Assembly (NCBI GenBank): GCA_002928535.1
Contig: PERG01000013.1
Span: 1-58,082 of the forward strand
DNA length: 58,082 nt
From: Methylotenera sp.
GTDB taxonomy: Bacteria; Pseudomonadota; Gammaproteobacteria; Burkholderiales; Methylophilaceae
Direction of reading: 5' to 3'
A model generated the notes under the pieces. It saw nothing but the letters and a program-made list of their open reading frames with translations. It was not told where the DNA came from and searched no databases. A program made the position numbers and the translations under genes. How positions within the stretch are numbered: position 1 is the stretch's first letter; each line of letters begins with the position of its first letter. Below are positions 41,967-49,377 of the stretch, piece after piece.

Positions 41967-43505
41967 TTAGGTGAGTGATCTTTCTAGCAAAGTGGCAAAG
42001 TCACGGGCAGGTAAAGCTTCGCTAAAAAAGAAACCCTGTCCTTCTGCGCAATGACAGCTTTTAAGAAAATCCAGTTGCTCTTGGGTTTCAATGCCTTCAG
42101 CCACGACACGGTGTTTCAGGCTAAGTCCCATTGCAATGATGGCTGTTACGATAGTCTCGCCGGTGCTTGCGTTAATATCCTTGACGAACGTCTGGTCAAT
42201 TTTAAGGGTATCAATCGGAAAGTTACGTAAATAGCTTAGGCTGGAATAGCCCGTGCCAAAGTCATCTATCGCAATCTGGACTCCAATCTCTTTAAGGGCA
42301 TACAAGATGGCTGTGGTTTCTATATCCTGCATCAAGCCACTTTCGGTGATCTCGACCTCAAGCAGATGCGGGGGCAACCCTGTCTCTTGCAGAATCGCTC
42401 GTACGCCTTCAAAAAAACCTTTATTGTGAAATTCAGTGGCTGAAACATTCACAGCAATCTGGCCGATGGGAAGTCCAGCTTTCAGCCATGCCTGTGTCTG
42501 ACGGCAAGCTTCACGCAACACCCAATGACCTATCGGTAGCATAATGCCGCATTCTTCAGCAACACTCACAAAATCGATGGGCTGGATCAGGCTATGTTGT
42601 GTCCTTTGCCACCGGATCAGCGCTTCAGCACCGATAATCTGTTCAGTCTCCAAATTCACCTTGGGCTGGTAATACACCACAAATTCCTGGTTTAAAAGCG
42701 CCTGATGCAAAGCCTGCTCAATGGATTGACGCGCTACGGCTCTCAAATTCATGTCTTGAGTAAACATCATGTATTTGTTGCGGCCTTTTTTCTTGGCTTG
42801 ATACATTGCAGTATCTGCATCCCTCACCAGAGCCTCCGGATTCTTCGAGTCCACTGGAAAAAGACTAATGCCGATACTCATGGTCACGTGTAATAAGTGG
42901 CCGCTGATTTGATGCGGCATCGCCATTGCTGAAATCAGCTTATCCGCAATAATAATAGAATCTTCCGGGTCTTTAACTTCACTGAGCAACACCACGAACT
43001 CATCGCCGCCATAGCGGCTCACCGTGTCTGATAAACGGACGCAGGCTTGCAAGCGCTTGGCAACGGATTGCAATAATTCATCACCAATCGCATGCCCCAA
43101 GGAATCATTAATATTTTTAAAATGATCAATATCCAGGAACATCAGTGCCACTTGGTAATTATTACGTTGCGCCAAGGTCATGGACTGTTCTAGGCGGTAG
43201 GTCATCAGCGAACGATTAGGCAAGCCGGTCAATAAATCATGCTCTGCCATATGCGACATCTGTGCATTCGCTTGCTCGGCTGCCTCCATCATGGTCTGGG
43301 CACGGATGGACGCTACCACTAGATTTTGATTGGCTTCAACGAGCTGCGCCTGGTTAAGGGCGTTTAGCGCAGCATTGGCTGCAGTGTTGTTTTCCCCCAG
43401 GTGTAATGCTTTTTCCCTTTGCATAATCTCTGCTTCACGCAGTAAGATTTTCTGCTCTCTGGCCATAATGGCAAGTTCACGTTGCTTTAAGAAATTAGTA
43501 GCCAT
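41967..43505 (-). CDS. Cytoplasmic GGDEF/EAL protein downstream of KaiC-like ATPase
   Basis: A 512-residue soluble protein. The first 80 residues are a Gln/Glu/Ala coiled coil (AREQKILLREAEIMQREKAL). The GGDEF domain follows (LTGLPNRSLM; motif RYGGDEF at 164-170) with an intact RxxD inhibitory site (RLSD at 157-160), then an EAL domain with EALIRW, NVSATEF, EITESGLM, DDFGTGYSSL, TLKIDQTFV and VVAEGIE. Both catalytic signatures look intact, so it could be bifunctional. It lies 62 bases after the KaiC-like gene on the same strand and is probably its output partner. Confidence 0.93.
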   Translation of the reverse strand: MATNFLKQRELAIMAREQKILLREAEIMQREKALHLGENNTAANAALNALNQAQLVEANQNLVVASIRAQTMMEAAEQANAQMSHMAEHDLLTGLPNRSLMTYRLEQSMTLAQRNNYQVALMFLDIDHFKNINDSLGHAIGDELLQSVAKRLQACVRLSDTVSRYGGDEFVVLLSEVKDPEDSIIIADKLISAMAMPHQISGHLLHVTMSIGISLFPVDSKNPEALVRDADTAMYQAKKKGRNKYMMFTQDMNLRAVARQSIEQALHQALLNQEFVVYYQPKVNLETEQIIGAEALIRWQRTQHSLIQPIDFVSVAEECGIMLPIGHWVLREACRQTQAWLKAGLPIGQIAVNVSATEFHNKGFFEGVRAILQETGLPPHLLEVEITESGLMQDIETTAILYALKEIGVQIAIDDFGTGYSSLSYLRNFPIDTLKIDQTFVKDINASTGETIVTAIIAMGLSLKHRVVAEGIETQEQLDFLKSCHCAEGQGFFFSEALPARDFATLLERSLT

Positions 43506-43567
43506 TTAAACCTGATTGCCTTAGGCGATAGACGTTCATTAAACGGTATTAAATAAGTTTCTGAACA

Positions 43568-45073
43568 TCAAATGAGACGATCACCATCATATGGCGGTAT
43601 AGCAGTATTTTGCGTCGATAAAGTTGGCTGTCCTCCTAACAGGCCTTCATAATCCAACATCAAATCGCCAATCACTAGCCCTTCATCCGTTATTTCATAA
43701 CTACGGATCGCTTTACTATGATTACTGGATCGCACTTTGACGACTGACATCACACGCTGTAAATTACTGCGGACTTCAATGTAACGTTGCACCACAATGG
43801 CGTCGGTCAAAAAGGCCGACCCATAAGGACTAAAACGTAAATCGGTATAGCGGTCCTCAAGCTCTGAAGTCATCAGTACCGTTACGCCAAGCCCGGCCAG
43901 CAACGCGACCATGCGGAACAGCGATTCCCGAAAGTCTTCCCTAAAAGTAGGCGCTACCGCCAGTTCAAAGCCGGATAAGGAGTCAATGACTACCCGCTTG
44001 GCTTTCATTTTATGAATAGTAGTGGTCAGGTGCTGCACAATTTCATCAATGCACAAATCAAGTGATCGGGTATTAATTAAGCCAATTTTCCCAGAGCGCA
44101 CCATATCATCAATGGCAGGGTTCCAGGATTGGCTTGGAGTCTGCTCAAAAGCGACAATGACTCCCGGCTCACCCCGTTCTAGGCCTGCAGTTAAAAATGC
44201 CGTGGCAAGAATGGTTTTACCCGAACCGGATGGCCCGGCCACTAGTAAAGAATAGCCTTCTGGCAAGCCTCCGCCCAGCATTTCATCCAATTGCGGTATG
44301 CCCATGGATAATCTGGACTTGGCTTGAAAAATCCGCGTATGGTTAGCATGTGCCACCGGATCATCATGTATGACGATTGCCGGAAATATCTGTAGCCCTG
44401 CATTGGTAATACGGAAAGTATGCATGCCCGGTCTTGTAGGCTGGCCGCGCATTTTGAGTACCTGTATCTGCCGCACCATGGAGTTACGGTGCACATTTTG
44501 CGTAAGCATGAGCAAGCCATCAGCGACAGCGAATACCGGATTTGCATCATTCTCCTTAACGTACTCTCCAATTAAGAATGTTGTGGCTTGCCAGCTACTC
44601 ATCTGGTTGCCGAGCTTGTGCACAAACTCTTCTGTGCTCAATGGTTTATTGGCTAAATGTTGAAGGTTGATAATGATTGAGCGAAATGAATCAACAAATA
44701 CCAATCCGGCTGAATAAGCCTTGATCTCCTTGGCAATTCGGCTCATTACCGTATCAAAGTTACCAGTGGCCACATCATCACTTATATTAATAAAATGGAT
44801 CGATTGGTTGACTTTAGCGAGATCGAAAAAAGAAAACTGCTGTTGATACCGCAGCATTTTCAAGGGCGTTTCTCCTAACACCGTAAAGAACAGCGCAGGT
44901 TTTTCCGGCGTAGCCAAGGCGAACATGATTTGATGGGCGAGCGTCGTCTTCCCTGACCCTGGGGCCCCGACGATGAGGTTAAAAGAAAACTCCGGGATGC
45001 CCCCACCCAATACTTCATCGAGACCAGGCACACCGGTTGCAAGCCGTCGAATAGATACTTTATTACTCATCAT
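43568..45073 (-). CDS. KaiC-like double-domain RecA-fold ATPase
   Basis: A 501-residue protein with two KaiC domains. Domain I (about 5-245): GVPGLDEVLGGGIPE, Walker A GAPGSGKT (36-43), Walker B LVFVDS (124-129). Domain II (about 250-500): GIPQLDEMLGGGLPEG, Walker A GPSGSGKT (280-287), Walker B RVVIDSLSG. The catalytic Glu pair is altered: G67-E68 in domain I, E310-Q311 in domain II. Alignment by eye of LTDAIVVQRYIEV with the KaiC segment after Ser431/Thr432 places Ala and Phe at the two clock phosphosites. It is thus unlikely to run a KaiC phosphorylation cycle; no kaiA or kaiB is present. Its start overlaps the upstream gene by four bases. Confidence 0.93.
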   Translation of the reverse strand: MMSNKVSIRRLATGVPGLDEVLGGGIPEFSFNLIVGAPGSGKTTLAHQIMFALATPEKPALFFTVLGETPLKMLRYQQQFSFFDLAKVNQSIHFINISDDVATGNFDTVMSRIAKEIKAYSAGLVFVDSFRSIIINLQHLANKPLSTEEFVHKLGNQMSSWQATTFLIGEYVKENDANPVFAVADGLLMLTQNVHRNSMVRQIQVLKMRGQPTRPGMHTFRITNAGLQIFPAIVIHDDPVAHANHTRIFQAKSRLSMGIPQLDEMLGGGLPEGYSLLVAGPSGSGKTILATAFLTAGLERGEPGVIVAFEQTPSQSWNPAIDDMVRSGKIGLINTRSLDLCIDEIVQHLTTTIHKMKAKRVVIDSLSGFELAVAPTFREDFRESLFRMVALLAGLGVTVLMTSELEDRYTDLRFSPYGSAFLTDAIVVQRYIEVRSNLQRVMSVVKVRSSNHSKAIRSYEITDEGLVIGDLMLDYEGLLGGQPTLSTQNTAIPPYDGDRLI

Positions 45074-45477
45074 GAACTCTCTTTCGGATTGCTTGTTACC
45101 AATACAGGATTTAATAGTTGATAAGTCAAGGACTCACCAATTAAAGCGACCAATAGCTGGATAAATGTTACTAATAAGGCTTCACTTGCTTTAATCGCGT
45201 GTCCTGGCTCCTGCAGCTCATAAAATTGCTTGAAATTGCCAAGTTGTGAAGTGTCATATGTATGATCTTCAATCGTCAGCCACGGAAAGTCTTTACTGAT
45301 AATATGGATAGCACGATTAAAAAGCGCCTCGGTGCCATAGGGGCCAATGACAGGATCTATTTGGCTTGCAAGCTGCTGCCATACAGTGAAAGTAGCCTCA
45401 GCAATCATTGTGGAATCTGAATCAGAGACTATCTGTTGGGCTAAGATGAGTTGTATCGTTTTAGTAAGCGGACGCAC
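45070..45477 (-). CDS. Small protein of unknown family coupled to the KaiC-like ATPase
   Basis: A 135-residue protein with no recognised domain, predicted mostly helical (TIQLILAQQIVSDSDS; FTVWQQLASQIDPVIGPYGT; ASEALLVTFIQLLVALIGES). The stop overlaps the KaiC-like start as ATGA. The only available start in frame is GTG at 45477, with no Shine-Dalgarno. Five bases upstream ends a 22-codon ORF that does have a perfect Shine-Dalgarno. Reading both as one gene needs a single extra base near 45500 and gives a 160-residue protein. The start should therefore be treated as unresolved. By context it may be a KaiC regulator or adaptor. Confidence 0.75.
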   Translation of the reverse strand: MRPLTKTIQLILAQQIVSDSDSTMIAEATFTVWQQLASQIDPVIGPYGTEALFNRAIHIISKDFPWLTIEDHTYDTSQLGNFKQFYELQEPGHAIKASEALLVTFIQLLVALIGESLTYQLLNPVLVTSNPKESS

Positions 45478-45482
45478 TTTTG

Positions 45483-45551
45483 CTACTGCATTGATTTCTT
45501 ATGACTCATGGCAGTCACAACTAGGAGGATTAGGTGGAGATAATGATACAT
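45483..45551 (-). CDS. 22-codon leader ORF, or displaced N-terminus of the KaiC partner
   Basis: The ORF begins MYHYLHLILLVV and ends MSHKKSMQ. AGGAGG stands exactly six bases before its ATG, the best ribosome-binding site in the region. It ends five bases before the GTG of the next gene, which has none. Two readings fit: a translated leader coupled to the next gene, or the true N-terminus of that gene separated by a one-base deletion in the AAGAAA run (joined sequence would read SHKK-INAVAKVRPLTKT). Confidence 0.4.
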   Translation of the reverse strand: MYHYLHLILLVVTAMSHKKSMQ

Positions 45552-45615
45552 AGTTAACCTCCTTAAATATTAAGGACTGCTATTTAGAAATCCATTCAAA
45601 ATGGAAGTAATGAGG

Positions 45616-45768: not shown

Positions 45769-46512
45769 CTAGTGGGATTGTTGTAATGGGGCGGTATCGT
45801 CGTACATTTCCAGCATGGCATTATAAGTTTGCTTGTCGGTCTGGTAGCAAATGCAGGAGGAGGCTTCCAGGCCAGCTAAATCATGAATATCCATATAGCC
45901 ACGGTTATAGGTGATCAAAGCCTTTTGCTTTAAAGAAGTGGCCGCTTTTGACACACCTACCCTGCGAACCCCGAGCATCTGGGCTAATAATTGCTGGGTG
46001 ATCTTGAAGGTTACAGATTCTTTTCTATCGTAAATCATAAGCAGTAAGCGCGCCAGGCGTTCTTCAACCACATGAAAACGGTTACATACCGTCATTTGCA
46101 CTAATTGACTGAAGGATACGCAAATATAGCGTTTTAGCCTTAATTCTAGCTCAGGGCATTTTTTTAGTTCTTCAAGGAATTGCTTGGCCTCGATGCGCAG
46201 CGTAGAGCCTGCACCTTGCACAATAGCGCGAAAAGGCGCTAGCTTAGATTCCAGCATGAGGGTAATGCCTAACATGCCTTCATTACCGATGAGCGCCACC
46301 TCCATGCCGGCATTTTTATCGACCGGATTAACTAAAGAAACAATACTTTGGAGGGGAAAATAAACGTATGTGATAGGCTCACCAGCTTCGTAAATCACCT
46401 GTGCCAGATTGAAGTGAACAAGCTCACACTGGCCCAAGAAGGCGAGCCGGCTCTTATCAGATAATGCATCTAATAACAGATTTTTAGTTGGAATTATTTT
46501 TTGAGATGCCAT
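45769..46512 (-). CDS. Crp/Fnr-family transcriptional regulator (second of three)
   Basis: A 247-residue regulator, the most divergent of the three. Beta-roll VYFPLQSIVSLVNPVDKNAG and ALIGNEGMLGITLML, dimer helix CNRFHVVEERLARLLLMIYD, recognition region ITQQLLAQMLGVRRVGVSKA, then a C-terminal GLEASSCICYQTDKQTYN with the Cys-x-Cys-Tyr motif. It carries no iron-sulfur cysteines at the N-terminus. It lies directly upstream of the KaiC-like operon on the same strand and could regulate it. Confidence 0.9.
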   Translation of the reverse strand: MASQKIIPTKNLLLDALSDKSRLAFLGQCELVHFNLAQVIYEAGEPITYVYFPLQSIVSLVNPVDKNAGMEVALIGNEGMLGITLMLESKLAPFRAIVQGAGSTLRIEAKQFLEELKKCPELELRLKRYICVSFSQLVQMTVCNRFHVVEERLARLLLMIYDRKESVTFKITQQLLAQMLGVRRVGVSKAATSLKQKALITYNRGYMDIHDLAGLEASSCICYQTDKQTYNAMLEMYDDTAPLQQSH

Positions 46513-46787: not shown

Positions 46788-47513
46788 CTAATGAGCAATT
46801 GCATGCAACGCTGGTAGTAAGCGTTCAAATTCCGCTTTTACCACGTGGTAGCATTCACATACCTGCTTTTCTAGCCCTGGGCGGTTTAACACGCGGATCT
46901 TGCCTCGGCTGTAGTTAATCAAGCCTGCTTTTTGTAGTTTACCTGCTGCCTCAGTCACACCAACTCTACGCACGCCTAACATATTGGCAATCAACTCTTG
47001 GGTCATAACGAGCTCGTCGCTTTCCAGGCGATCCAGGCTTAACAATAACCAGCGACATAATTGCTGATCCACGGAATGATGACGGTTACATACCGCTGTC
47101 TGTGACATTTGAGTGATCAAAGCTTGGGTATAGCGCAATAAAAGCCGCATCACCGGGCCGGCACGGTTGAATTCATCTTTAAGCAACTTGGATTTGATTT
47201 TATAACCGTAGCCCTCGCTTTGCACCACGGCGCGGCTGGGGGTGGTTTCCCCGCCCATAAAAATCGAAACCCCTAAAATGCCCTCTTTGCCGACCACGGC
47301 AATTTCAGCAGAAGCACCATCTTCCATTACATATAAGAGTGAAACGATGGAGTTAACTGGAAAATAGACATATGGGAGTATGGCGCCTGATTCATACAAC
47401 ACTTCCCCCAACGATAGTTTAACTAATTCGAGCTGTGGAAAGAGGCGATCATATTCAGATTTGAATAATGCATCTAATAAGTGATTCTGCCGCGGATTAT
47501 AGATATCTGACAT
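46788..47513 (-). CDS. Crp/Fnr-family transcriptional regulator (third of three)
   Basis: A 241-residue regulator, close paralogue of the one at 35500: both share ASxEIAVVGxxGxxGxSxF, CNRHHSxDQQLCRxLLLSLD and MLANxLGVRR-type helices. Here these read VYFPVNSIVSLLYVMEDGAS, CNRHHSVDQQLCRWLLLSLD and MTQELIANMLGVRRVGVTEA. The tail is GLEKQVCECYHVVKAEFERL. The effector is unknown. The upstream 420-base spacer is rich in palindromes. Confidence 0.9.
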   Translation of the reverse strand: MSDIYNPRQNHLLDALFKSEYDRLFPQLELVKLSLGEVLYESGAILPYVYFPVNSIVSLLYVMEDGASAEIAVVGKEGILGVSIFMGGETTPSRAVVQSEGYGYKIKSKLLKDEFNRAGPVMRLLLRYTQALITQMSQTAVCNRHHSVDQQLCRWLLLSLDRLESDELVMTQELIANMLGVRRVGVTEAAGKLQKAGLINYSRGKIRVLNRPGLEKQVCECYHVVKAEFERLLPALHAIAH

Positions 47514-48455: not shown

Positions 48456-48621
48456 CCCTCCAGACTAAGCGCCAATCCTCGTCTTACCAACCAATTTGTC
48501 AAATATTCATAGTCTATTCGGACTATTTGCGCCTGAAAAATACACTGTTAAATTAAGCTTAGCTGGTCAAAATTGACACCCAGCCTTTTTAATGCCTGAT
48601 CTCAATAAAAGGAATTTTCCG

Positions 48622-49377
48622 ATGAGAACATTTAAATGCAGCTTCCTCTTGGTATGGTTGATATTGTGTTCATCTTCGGCATTCGCAGCCAGCGCTTCAG
48701 CCTATTTGGATAACTTCAGTTTGGACGTGACGGGCGGCAGTCTCACGCAGCGTGATAACTCTTTCGTCAATACAGATGTTTCCGTAATCGGTGATAGACA
48801 ACAGCATTATTCTTATACGCCTGAGGCAGATTTTTCGTTCTTTTCTTCAACGTCTCTTGCTAATGCAACGGATACCGCAATAGCGGAAGTATCATTTGGT
48901 CCCAATGACCCAAACTCTTATATGTCTGCCTCCGTAATTGGGGAGGATCAGCACTTTACTTTTGCACAATCGTCTTTATTTTATACTTACAATTATCAAG
49001 CCAATACGGCTGTCACTGTTTCTGCCGATGCATTTATCGAGTTCCAACCAGATCCTGGGAGTGAGTTTCTAGCTTCTACTGGTGCTGGATTCTATTTTCA
49101 CAATGTGATGAATCCCAATGAATATTCATTCAGCCGTTTTTTAATTGAAGAAAATACGACATCGCCCTATAGTCGGTTTGATAGCTTATCAGCAACTTTC
49201 CAGGCGCCAGTAGATATGATCTTACTTATTGGCTACGGCGTCACAGCCAGGATCAATGACGCACCTGTGACACCAGTACCCGAACCTGAAACCTACGCCA
49301 TGCTGCTGGCAGGTTTGGGCTTAATAGGGTTTGTGGGTAAACGAAAATCTAAAAATGATATTCGTGAGAGAAATTGA
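48622..49377 (+). CDS. PEP-CTERM exported protein (first of three)
   Basis: A 251-residue exported protein: signal peptide (TFKCSFLLVWLILCSSSAFA), a beta-rich Ser/Thr/Ala/Asn domain, and a C-terminal PEP-CTERM sorting tag PVPEPETYAMLLAGLGLIGF then VGKRKSK. PEP-CTERM proteins are recognised by exosortase (EpsH) and released into the extracellular matrix or surface; no exosortase is in this window. AAGGA precedes the ATG at 48622 (MRTFK). The N-terminal motif AYLDNFSLDVTGG is shared with the third gene, marking paralogues. GTCAA-AA-TTGAC (48566-48577) lies upstream. Confidence 0.9.
   Translation: MRTFKCSFLLVWLILCSSSAFAASASAYLDNFSLDVTGGSLTQRDNSFVNTDVSVIGDRQQHYSYTPEADFSFFSSTSLANATDTAIAEVSFGPNDPNSYMSASVIGEDQHFTFAQSSLFYTYNYQANTAVTVSADAFIEFQPDPGSEFLASTGAGFYFHNVMNPNEYSFSRFLIEENTTSPYSRFDSLSATFQAPVDMILLIGYGVTARINDAPVTPVPEPETYAMLLAGLGLIGFVGKRKSKNDIRERN

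What the first reader, a model, noticed from the sequence alone, without database searches (positions are those of the whole stretch)
41967..45551. KaiC-like ATPase operon with an unknown small protein and a GGDEF/EAL output, lacking kaiA and kaiB
Three same-strand genes form a tight unit: an unrecognised 135-residue protein overlapping by ATGA a double-domain KaiC-like ATPase, then a cytoplasmic GGDEF/EAL protein. Both Walker A and B sets are intact. Each half keeps only one of the paired catalytic glutamates of KaiC (G-E in the first, E-Q in the second), and by-eye alignment puts Ala and Phe at the KaiC phosphosites. This suggests an ATP-dependent switch, not a clock, feeding c-di-GMP metabolism. 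What is seen: the motifs and gene order. Known: KaiC and GGDEF/EAL families. Inferred: functional coupling.
Basis: partly seen in the sequence, partly recalled or inferred. Interest (0 to 1): 0.75.

Follow-up and report, generated by a model that had tools for sequence, protein, structure and literature searches.

The report
KaiC switch with swappable signalling outputs
A relative of the cyanobacterial clock ATPase that lacks the clock's phosphorylation sites occurs in several bacterial phyla together with its own small helical protein and an output enzyme that begins with one shared coiled-coil segment, which suggests a widespread molecular switch.

Summary
A homologue of the 135-aa protein (no Pfam or NCBIfam family for the window copy, predicted all-helical, no PDB fold match) lies upstream of the KaiC in 82 of 84 loci from nine phyla, overlapping it in 56. 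In 61 relatives the same 4 genomes hold KaiC, small protein and adaptor. All 81 aligned KaiCs have Gly-Glu for the first-domain Glu-Glu; 61 of 81 have no Ser/Thr at either phosphosite, 20 keep the serine. New here: the output gene carries a shared coiled-coil-like segment, 'LREANExLVxATxxAQ', before GGDEF(-EAL) or histidine-kinase domains (73 of 84 loci). Its spacing is constant for GGDEF (42 of 42 recognised hits) and steps by seven for HisKA kinases (nearest copy, 23 of 23 loci). One genome fuses the small domain to a GGDEF. Best reading: a KaiB- and phosphorylation-independent KaiC ATPase, with its helical partner, sets a coiled-coil clutch on interchangeable outputs. Biochemistry is untested. 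KaiC near kinases or GGDEF/EAL was published in 2011 (PMC3164672); my searches showed neither small partner nor adaptor.

The parts
45070..45477 (-). Small all-helical KaiC partner protein, 135 aa (GTG start)
   Evidence: no family; homologue upstream of KaiC in 82 of 84 loci; AlphaFold2 pLDDT 88.5, pTM 0.83, six helices
45483..45551 (-). 22-codon leader frame with AAGGAGG (45558-45564), ending 5 nt before the small gene's GTG; possible translational coupling, role unknown
   Evidence: Sequence
43568..45073 (-). KaiC-like double ATPase (KaiC*), 501 aa, start overlaps the small gene's stop (ATGA)
44945..44968 (-). First-domain Walker A GAPGSGKT (residues 36-43)
44870..44875 (-). Gly67-Glu68 in place of KaiC E77-E78; GE in 81 of 81 fetched relatives and 19 of 19 copies found by other routes
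44825..44860 (-). KMLRYQQQFSFF (residues 72-83); the KMLRYQQQ core is in 18 of 19 copies found by other routes than the peptide scan, the serine varies there; possible partner surface
44213..44236 (-). Second-domain Walker A GPSGSGKT (residues 280-287)
44141..44146 (-). Glu310-Gln311 at KaiC E318-E319; E318 kept in 81 of 81
43811..43816 (-). Ala420-Phe421 at KaiC phosphosites S431-T432 (A-F in 55 of 81)
41967..43505 (-). Output enzyme: adaptor coil + GGDEF + EAL, 512 aa
43254..43343 (-). Adaptor coiled coil, residues 55-84 (LVEANQNLVVASIRAQTMMEAAEQANAQMS)
42774..43247 (-). GGDEF domain, GGDEF motif and RxxD inhibitory site present
42018..42716 (-). EAL domain; EAL, DDFGTG, KID and AEGIE motifs present

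Best explanation
A three-part signalling module. (1) A KaiC-family double ATPase that works without KaiA, KaiB or Ser/Thr phosphorylation. (2) A dedicated small helical protein encoded in the same operon. (3) An output enzyme whose catalytic domain is preceded by a dedicated coiled-coil adaptor. Proposed mechanism: the nucleotide state of the KaiC* ring, read with or through the small protein, is passed to the adaptor coil; the coil, rigidly phased to the dimeric output domain, shifts register and toggles diguanylate cyclase/phosphodiesterase activity here, or a histidine kinase elsewhere. Shown by sequence: the parts, their linkage, the lost phosphosites, the constant or heptad-stepped spacing. 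Inferred: ring formation, physical contact, that the small protein is the bridge, the direction of signalling, and that ATP/ADP is the input.
For: Linkage: small protein upstream of KaiC* in 82 of 84 loci. In 61 relatives KaiC*, small protein and adaptor occur in the same 4 genomes. In 369 class genomes KaiC* (over 300 bits) is in 9; the small protein is in 7 of those plus one fusion elsewhere; strong adaptor hits (E<=1.1e-9) are 8 places in 7 genomes, each next to a KaiC*. Over the three small-protein searches 14 distinct genomes have it: 13 directly upstream of KaiC*, 1 as a fusion. Held-out cases: 4 of 4 plasmid copies have small protein, an adjacent adaptor and GE. Coupling: adaptor Asn to GGDEF Asp 31 residues in 42 of 42 recognised hits; nearest adaptor Asn to phospho-His 33 in 16 loci, 40 in 3, 47 in 2, 26 and 54 in one each, i.e. 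steps of seven in 23 of 23 loci. Swapping: 34 GGDEF+EAL and 32 kinase outputs of 73, of HisKA, HisKA_3 or HWE type where an adaptor is present; 6 switches on a FastTree KaiC tree against 20.5 shuffled. Fusion: small domain plus GGDEF in one frame, L187. No Ser/Thr phosphosite in 61 of 81; KaiA in 0 of 13, KaiB in 3 of 13 operon genomes.
Against: No interaction or activity was tested and the complex could not be modelled (predictor switched off). No adaptor near KaiC* in 11 of 84 loci (L100 has only 560 nt downstream); for L079, L082, L089, L093, L096, L113 and L115 the A2 profile found none in the genome either, though A2 also missed six genomes whose divergent adaptor the iterated model finds. 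G077 has KaiC* without small protein or adaptor within 14 kb, G234 has no adaptor hit. Deep-branching members keep the serine (S-F in 20 of 81), so phosphorylation is not excluded there. Same GGDEF spacing may be shared descent, and the heptad steps reflect only about four independent length changes. In three kinases the upstream adaptor copy sits at 64, 66 or 70, not heptad steps. In G041 and G142 a kaiC-kaiB cluster lies next door, so KaiB may still matter.
Confidence: 0.6

Rival explanations
1. A reduced KaiC hourglass timer: KaiC* still keeps time through its slow ATPase cycle and the small protein stands in for KaiB or KaiA.
For: Walker A lysine is kept in 80 of 81 (first) and 81 of 81 (second domain), E318 and the K/R interface residues in 81 of 81; the S431 equivalent is kept in 20 of 81; in G041 and G142 the module sits beside a kaiC-kaiB cluster.
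Against: First-domain catalytic pair is GE in 81 of 81 and no Ser/Thr at either phosphosite in 61 of 81; the small protein is all-helical with no PDB match; KaiB found in only 3 of 13 operon genomes.
Confidence: 0.15
2. The adaptor is an ordinary signalling linker (S-helix-like) with no special tie to KaiC*; the operon only groups signalling genes.
For: Position, length and heptads resemble the S-helix (passages of PMC1592074).
Against: Strong adaptor hits occur only beside KaiC*: 4 of 61 relatives and 7 of 369 class genomes, none at E<=0.001 in the 360 class genomes without KaiC* (three partial hits at 0.001-0.007); the S-helix ERT signature is lacking.
Confidence: 0.12
3. The small protein is a direct sensor for the output coil and KaiC* is its ATP-driven loader or remodeller, acting on the small protein alone.
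For: Small domain fused to a GGDEF, with no KaiC* found nearby, in G215 (L187).
Against: A single fusion in one genome; in 13 of 14 genomes found with the small protein it sits directly before KaiC*.
Confidence: 0.13

Closest known systems
Cyanobacterial KaiABC-SasA/CikA clock
   Same: Double-domain KaiC ATPase; kinase-type outputs
   Different: KaiA found in 0 of 13 and KaiB in 3 of 13 operon genomes; no Ser/Thr phosphosite in 61 of 81; GE in the first domain; different small partner; a coiled-coil segment where SasA has a KaiB-like domain (SasA as described in PMC3164672)
KaiBC clusters of Proteobacteria (M. extorquens kaiC1-kaiB2-kaiB1-kaiR1, passages of PMC8069551; the kaiC-kaiB-kaiB-kinase cluster in L119)
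   Same: KaiC operon with a signalling output
   Different: These have kaiB, and Ser at the phosphosites; both kinds sit side by side in G041 and G142
Ramlibacter KaiC contexts (PMC3164672, section 17 read): 'dark-blue' KaiC + Nt-kinase and 'black' group KaiC with receiver, kinase or GGDEF/EAL genes nearby
   Same: The black group (A-F and S-F sites are among those its legend lists) probably includes this KaiC; output types reported there. The own second KaiC (contig C4, S-Y sites, kinase next to it) looks like the dark-blue type
   Different: Called a less conserved arrangement; small partner, adaptor coil and heptad phasing not described in the text I read. Its Fig S6 marks 'HP' neighbours, which I could not see
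Signalling helix (S-helix; passages of PMC1592074)
   Same: About 40-residue coiled coil before kinase or cyclase domains
   Different: No ERT signature; strong hits found only beside KaiC in the genomes searched

Membership tests
KaiC superfamily (PF06745) | Two RecA-like KaiC domains with Walker A and B | tested here: met
   252.6 bits, cut-off 26.6; Walker A lysine in 80 of 81 (first) and 81 of 81 (second), Walker B Asp in 81 of 81 for both
Circadian KaiC (TIGR02655, NF006799) | Curated equivalog cut-off | tested here: not met
   167.8 against 546.25 bits; 240.2 against 408 bits
Circadian KaiC | Phosphosites S431/T432 | tested here: not met
   Ala-Phe in the window; no Ser/Thr at either site in 61 of 81, one of which (L059) has Tyr at the second; 20 keep the serine
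Circadian KaiC | Paired catalytic Glu in both domains | tested here: not met
   GE and EQ
KaiABC or KaiBC operon | kaiB (and kaiA) partners | tested here: not met
   None in the operon; own assembly KaiB 0, KaiA 0, 87.6% complete
KaiB or KaiA (for the small protein) | PF07689 or PF07688 match; KaiB has a thioredoxin-like fold (recalled) | tested here: not met
   No match to KaiA or KaiB among the families listed for 76 members; all-helical model, no PDB match at E<=0.001
S-helix | Parallel coiled coil of about 40 residues before the effector | tested here: inconclusive
   Heptad pattern and spacing; pairing and direction not tested
S-helix | ERT signature in the central heptad | tested here: not met
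   d columns are Ala/Ser or Met/Leu; definition from passages of PMC1592074
GGDEF/EAL enzymes | Full domains with catalytic motifs | tested here: met
   188.1 and 234.4 bits; motifs in the window; GG[DE]EF, RxxD and ExLxR in 34 of 34 GGDEF+EAL outputs, other EAL motifs by simple pattern in 24-32 of 34, some rows being cut
GGDEF/EAL enzymes | Cyclase or phosphodiesterase activity | not testable with these tools
   Needs an assay

The most novel reading that the evidence does not exclude
A separate branch of KaiC biology: a KaiB- and phosphorylation-independent KaiC ATPase with its own unnamed helical partner family and a universal coiled-coil plug, through which one energy-state sensor is wired, across phyla and by horizontal transfer, to interchangeable outputs (c-di-GMP enzymes or at least three types of histidine kinase), in places set beside a KaiBC cluster.
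Probability: 0.5. Interest if true: 0.82.

Novelty: new variant of a known kind. Interest (0 to 1): 0.73.

Why it matters
How KaiC proteins without phosphosites could act is an open question: a 2024 myxobacterial paper reports fifty such KaiCs, says that the KaiB-binding loop is missing in myxobacterial homologues, and asks how they act (PMC11832031, passages). This module offers concrete partners: a small helical protein and a coiled-coil adaptor phased to the catalytic domain. That makes the question directly testable in cultured bacteria, and it links KaiC ATPases to c-di-GMP.

Tried and rejected
KaiB or KaiA identity of the small protein: rejected. Stray single-member matches of the 76: ESX-1_EspG, Arabinose_bd, streptophobe; taken as chance. 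Anti-phage defence: PADLOC gives P-loop ATPase matches to KaiC (best mad8, E 8e-14, part of the chain) and none to the other two proteins. Promoter and terminator patterns: no more than in shuffles (9 against 11.7, 4 against 6.1), so operon limits rest on overlap and conservation. Crp-like regulators as a fourth part: only 5 of 83 loci. Phages: no match. E-Q as a family signature: not conserved.

Limits. The 84 loci are the best 80 of 132 relatives found, 3 from relatives and the window; the scan patterns favour near kin. Three KaiCs (L068, L070, L099) were dropped from the residue tally because the span I used held a stop. A2 was picked with a motif that fixes several positions (columns 11, 14, 15, 18, 19, 21, 22, 25), so their conservation, and five of nine heptad positions, are partly by construction; columns 28, 32, 35 and 39 were free and are 83-98% hydrophobic. 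The iterated adaptor model was trained on the same loci. The first profile alone finds the adaptor downstream in 57 of 84. In the class and phylum searches at most 10 first-look candidates per genome were scored for the small protein (4 for KaiC in the class), so counts are lower bounds. Of 89 adaptor hits, 42 were assigned a GGDEF and 26 a HisKA spacing, 21 neither (L040 failed the pattern). One search looks only past the best adaptor hit; L070, L073, L077 and L119 also have a GGDEF before it and were left out.
Full report
OBSERVATION. The window's - strand carries a 135-aa protein (45070-45477), a 501-aa KaiC-like ATPase (43568-45073, sharing ATGA with the first) and a 512-aa GGDEF/EAL protein (41967-43505, 62 nt on). 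Pfam gives two KaiC domains, one GGDEF and one EAL, and nothing for the small protein; NCBIfam gives it nothing either. The own genome has a second, different KaiC (contig C4, S-Y at the phosphosites) followed by a PAS/HisKA/receiver kinase.

CONSERVATION. A scan of genome contigs found 132 relatives and kept the best 80, with the KaiC at 49-74% identity, from Pseudomonadota, Thermodesulfobacteriota, Acidobacteriota, Nitrospirota, Verrucomicrobiota, Armatimonadota, Planctomycetota, Gemmatimonadota and Myxococcota. With three relatives and the window, 84 loci were examined. The small protein lies on the same strand upstream of KaiC in 82; the misses are L105, whose KaiC match starts at base 173 of the locus, and L074. 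It overlaps KaiC in 56 of the 82. In one of the 82, L092, a GGDEF/EAL gene lies between the two. Distances of the two proteins correlate (Spearman 0.78; highest of 500 permutations 0.15; 75 loci).

SPECIFICITY. In 61 relatives, the close KaiC (over 600 bits), the small protein and the adaptor described below occur in the same 4 genomes, 3 of them among the window's 37 same-genus genomes. In 369 genomes of the class, the close KaiC (over 300 bits) is in 9; the small protein is in 7 of these 9 and, as a fusion, in one other; strong adaptor hits are in 7 of the 9, always beside KaiC, and none reaches E<=0.001 in the other 360. Exceptions: G077 has KaiC but neither partner within 14 kb; G370 has only the KaiC C-terminal part plus adaptor; G234 lacks an adaptor hit. 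Seven class genomes had only distant KaiCs (28-33% identity, E<=1e-40); of these only G215 has the small domain, as the fusion. In 398 genomes of the phylum, the 3 new genomes with the small protein all have KaiC directly after it.

KaiC* FEATURES. In 81 aligned KaiCs, GE replaces EE in the first domain in all 81; E318 is kept in 81; E319 is K 33, Q 24, E 16, R 7, D 1; the phosphosites are A-F 55, S-F 20, C-F 2 and A-Y, A-I, V-V, G-V one each. So 61 have no Ser/Thr at either site (one of them has Tyr) and 20 keep the serine. In 19 copies found by other routes than the peptide scan, GE is in 19 and the following KMLRYQQQ in 18; the rest of RYQQQFSFF varies. The alignment shows a shortened stretch where the KaiB-binding loop of KaiC lies (loop position recalled).

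SMALL PROTEIN. AlphaFold2 on 76 sequences gives pLDDT 88.5 and pTM 0.83, with helices 4-15, 22-44, 46-60, 78-87, 91-113 and 115-127. Foldseek finds no PDB match (best E 1.2), and a sequence profile finds none better than E 0.44.

THE ADAPTOR. The output genes share a segment, 'LREANExLVxATxxAQxxxExAE', before the catalytic part. The first profile finds it downstream of KaiC in 57 of 84 loci; an iterated profile finds it downstream in 67, upstream of KaiC in 6 (5 before the small gene; in L092 between the two genes) and not in 11. The only other place in these loci is a second output gene in L063. What follows it, in 73 loci, is GGDEF+EAL 34, kinase 32, GGDEF alone 4 (L041 cut by its contig end), PAS only 2, too short 1. 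Of the ten proteins sent to Pfam, adaptor-bearing outputs show HisKA, HisKA_3 or HWE kinases; HisKA_2 is in L096, which has no adaptor hit. Outputs switch 6 times on a FastTree KaiC tree (64 labelled loci; shuffled mean 20.5). Hydrophobic columns fall on a/d heptad positions, of which four were not fixed by the picking motif. From the conserved Asn to the GGDEF start there are 31 residues in 42 of 42 recognised hits (41 loci). From the nearest copy to the phospho-His there are 33 in 16 loci, 40 in 3, 47 in 2, and 26 and 54 in one each: steps of seven in 23 of 23 loci, over about four independent length changes. Upstream copies in L060, L057 and L058 sit at 64, 66 and 70; each of these kinases has a second copy at 33. 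Two outputs can stand in one operon: G142 has two adaptor genes, one of them GGDEF/EAL.

TRANS AND HELD-OUT TESTS. One search took 17 genomes whose locus lacked an adaptor by the first profile and 3 positive controls. The controls hit in 3 of 3. Of the 17, 3 had a clear hit elsewhere: two belong to a second complete small-KaiC-adaptor operon (L188, L189), one lies beside a distant KaiC (L193); a fourth (G437) is weak. Six of the 17 (L102, L104, L106, L109, L112, L117) have a divergent adaptor in the locus by the iterated model which the first profile did not see, so its misses there count for little. Four plasmid records carry the KaiC; all four have the small protein, an adjacent adaptor and GE; in L196 the only adaptor is in the opposite-strand kinase next door, and its KaiC is split in two frames; three of the four have insertion-sequence genes in the 4 kb flanks.

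FUSION. In G215 one 373-aa frame joins the small domain to a GGDEF, with 'EIAEQLTLTVLRAEADARVA' between them, which looks like a degenerate adaptor by eye; the profile did not score it.

NEIGHBOURING KaiBC. In G041 a kaiC-kaiB-kaiB-kinase cluster and in G142 a kaiC-kaiB pair with a PAS/GAF protein lie directly beside the module. G269 has a KaiB match with an internal stop on another contig.

EVOLUTION. The window's KaiC groups (100/100) with 18 rows of Thermodesulfobacteriota, Pseudomonadota (Rhodocyclaceae among them), Acidobacteriota and Nitrospirota, apart from the two same-genus copies. This suggests horizontal transfer, but paralogy is not excluded.

MECHANISM. I propose that KaiC* and the small protein set the register of the adaptor coil, and with it the output. 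Coiled-coil register control of diguanylate cyclases is in print (PMC12805367, listing only). Physical contact, direction and the ATP/ADP input are inferred. In S. elongatus, degrading c-di-GMP shifts the clock, but c-di-GMP did not act on Kai proteins directly in vitro (PMC13001216, passages), so that is no precedent for this wiring.

PRIOR ART. PMC3164672 (section 17 read; other passages) described kaiC contexts with kinases and GGDEF/EAL, and a group with poor phosphosites. PMC11832031 (passages) reports KaiCs without phosphosites. In the listings of my ten searches and the passages that I opened I saw no description of the small protein or the adaptor; figures, supplements and subscription papers were out of reach.

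Noticed in passing
window 45483-45551 (-): A strong ribosome site and a 22-codon frame end 5 nt before the GTG of the small gene, which has no clear site of its own; possible leader peptide.
   Followed up: partly
window 45769-46512 and 46788-47513 (-): Two Crp/Fnr-type regulators in tandem just upstream of the operon; similar ones lie near the KaiC in 5 of 83 loci.
   Followed up: partly
L119 3142-7394; L202 8341-12543: A kaiC-kaiB cluster, with a kinase in L119 and a PAS/GAF protein in L202, lies directly beside the small-KaiC*-output operon in G041 and G142.
   Followed up: partly
L125 4745-8715 (own contig C4): Second KaiC of the genome, with S-Y at the phosphosites, overlapping a PAS/HisKA/receiver kinase.
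   Followed up: partly
window 48592-49377 (+): Protein ending in a PEP-CTERM-like tail (VPEPETYAMLLAGLGLIGFVGKRK), by eye only.
   Followed up: no
L187 7519-8637: Small domain fused to a GGDEF domain without a neighbouring KaiC*.
   Followed up: partly
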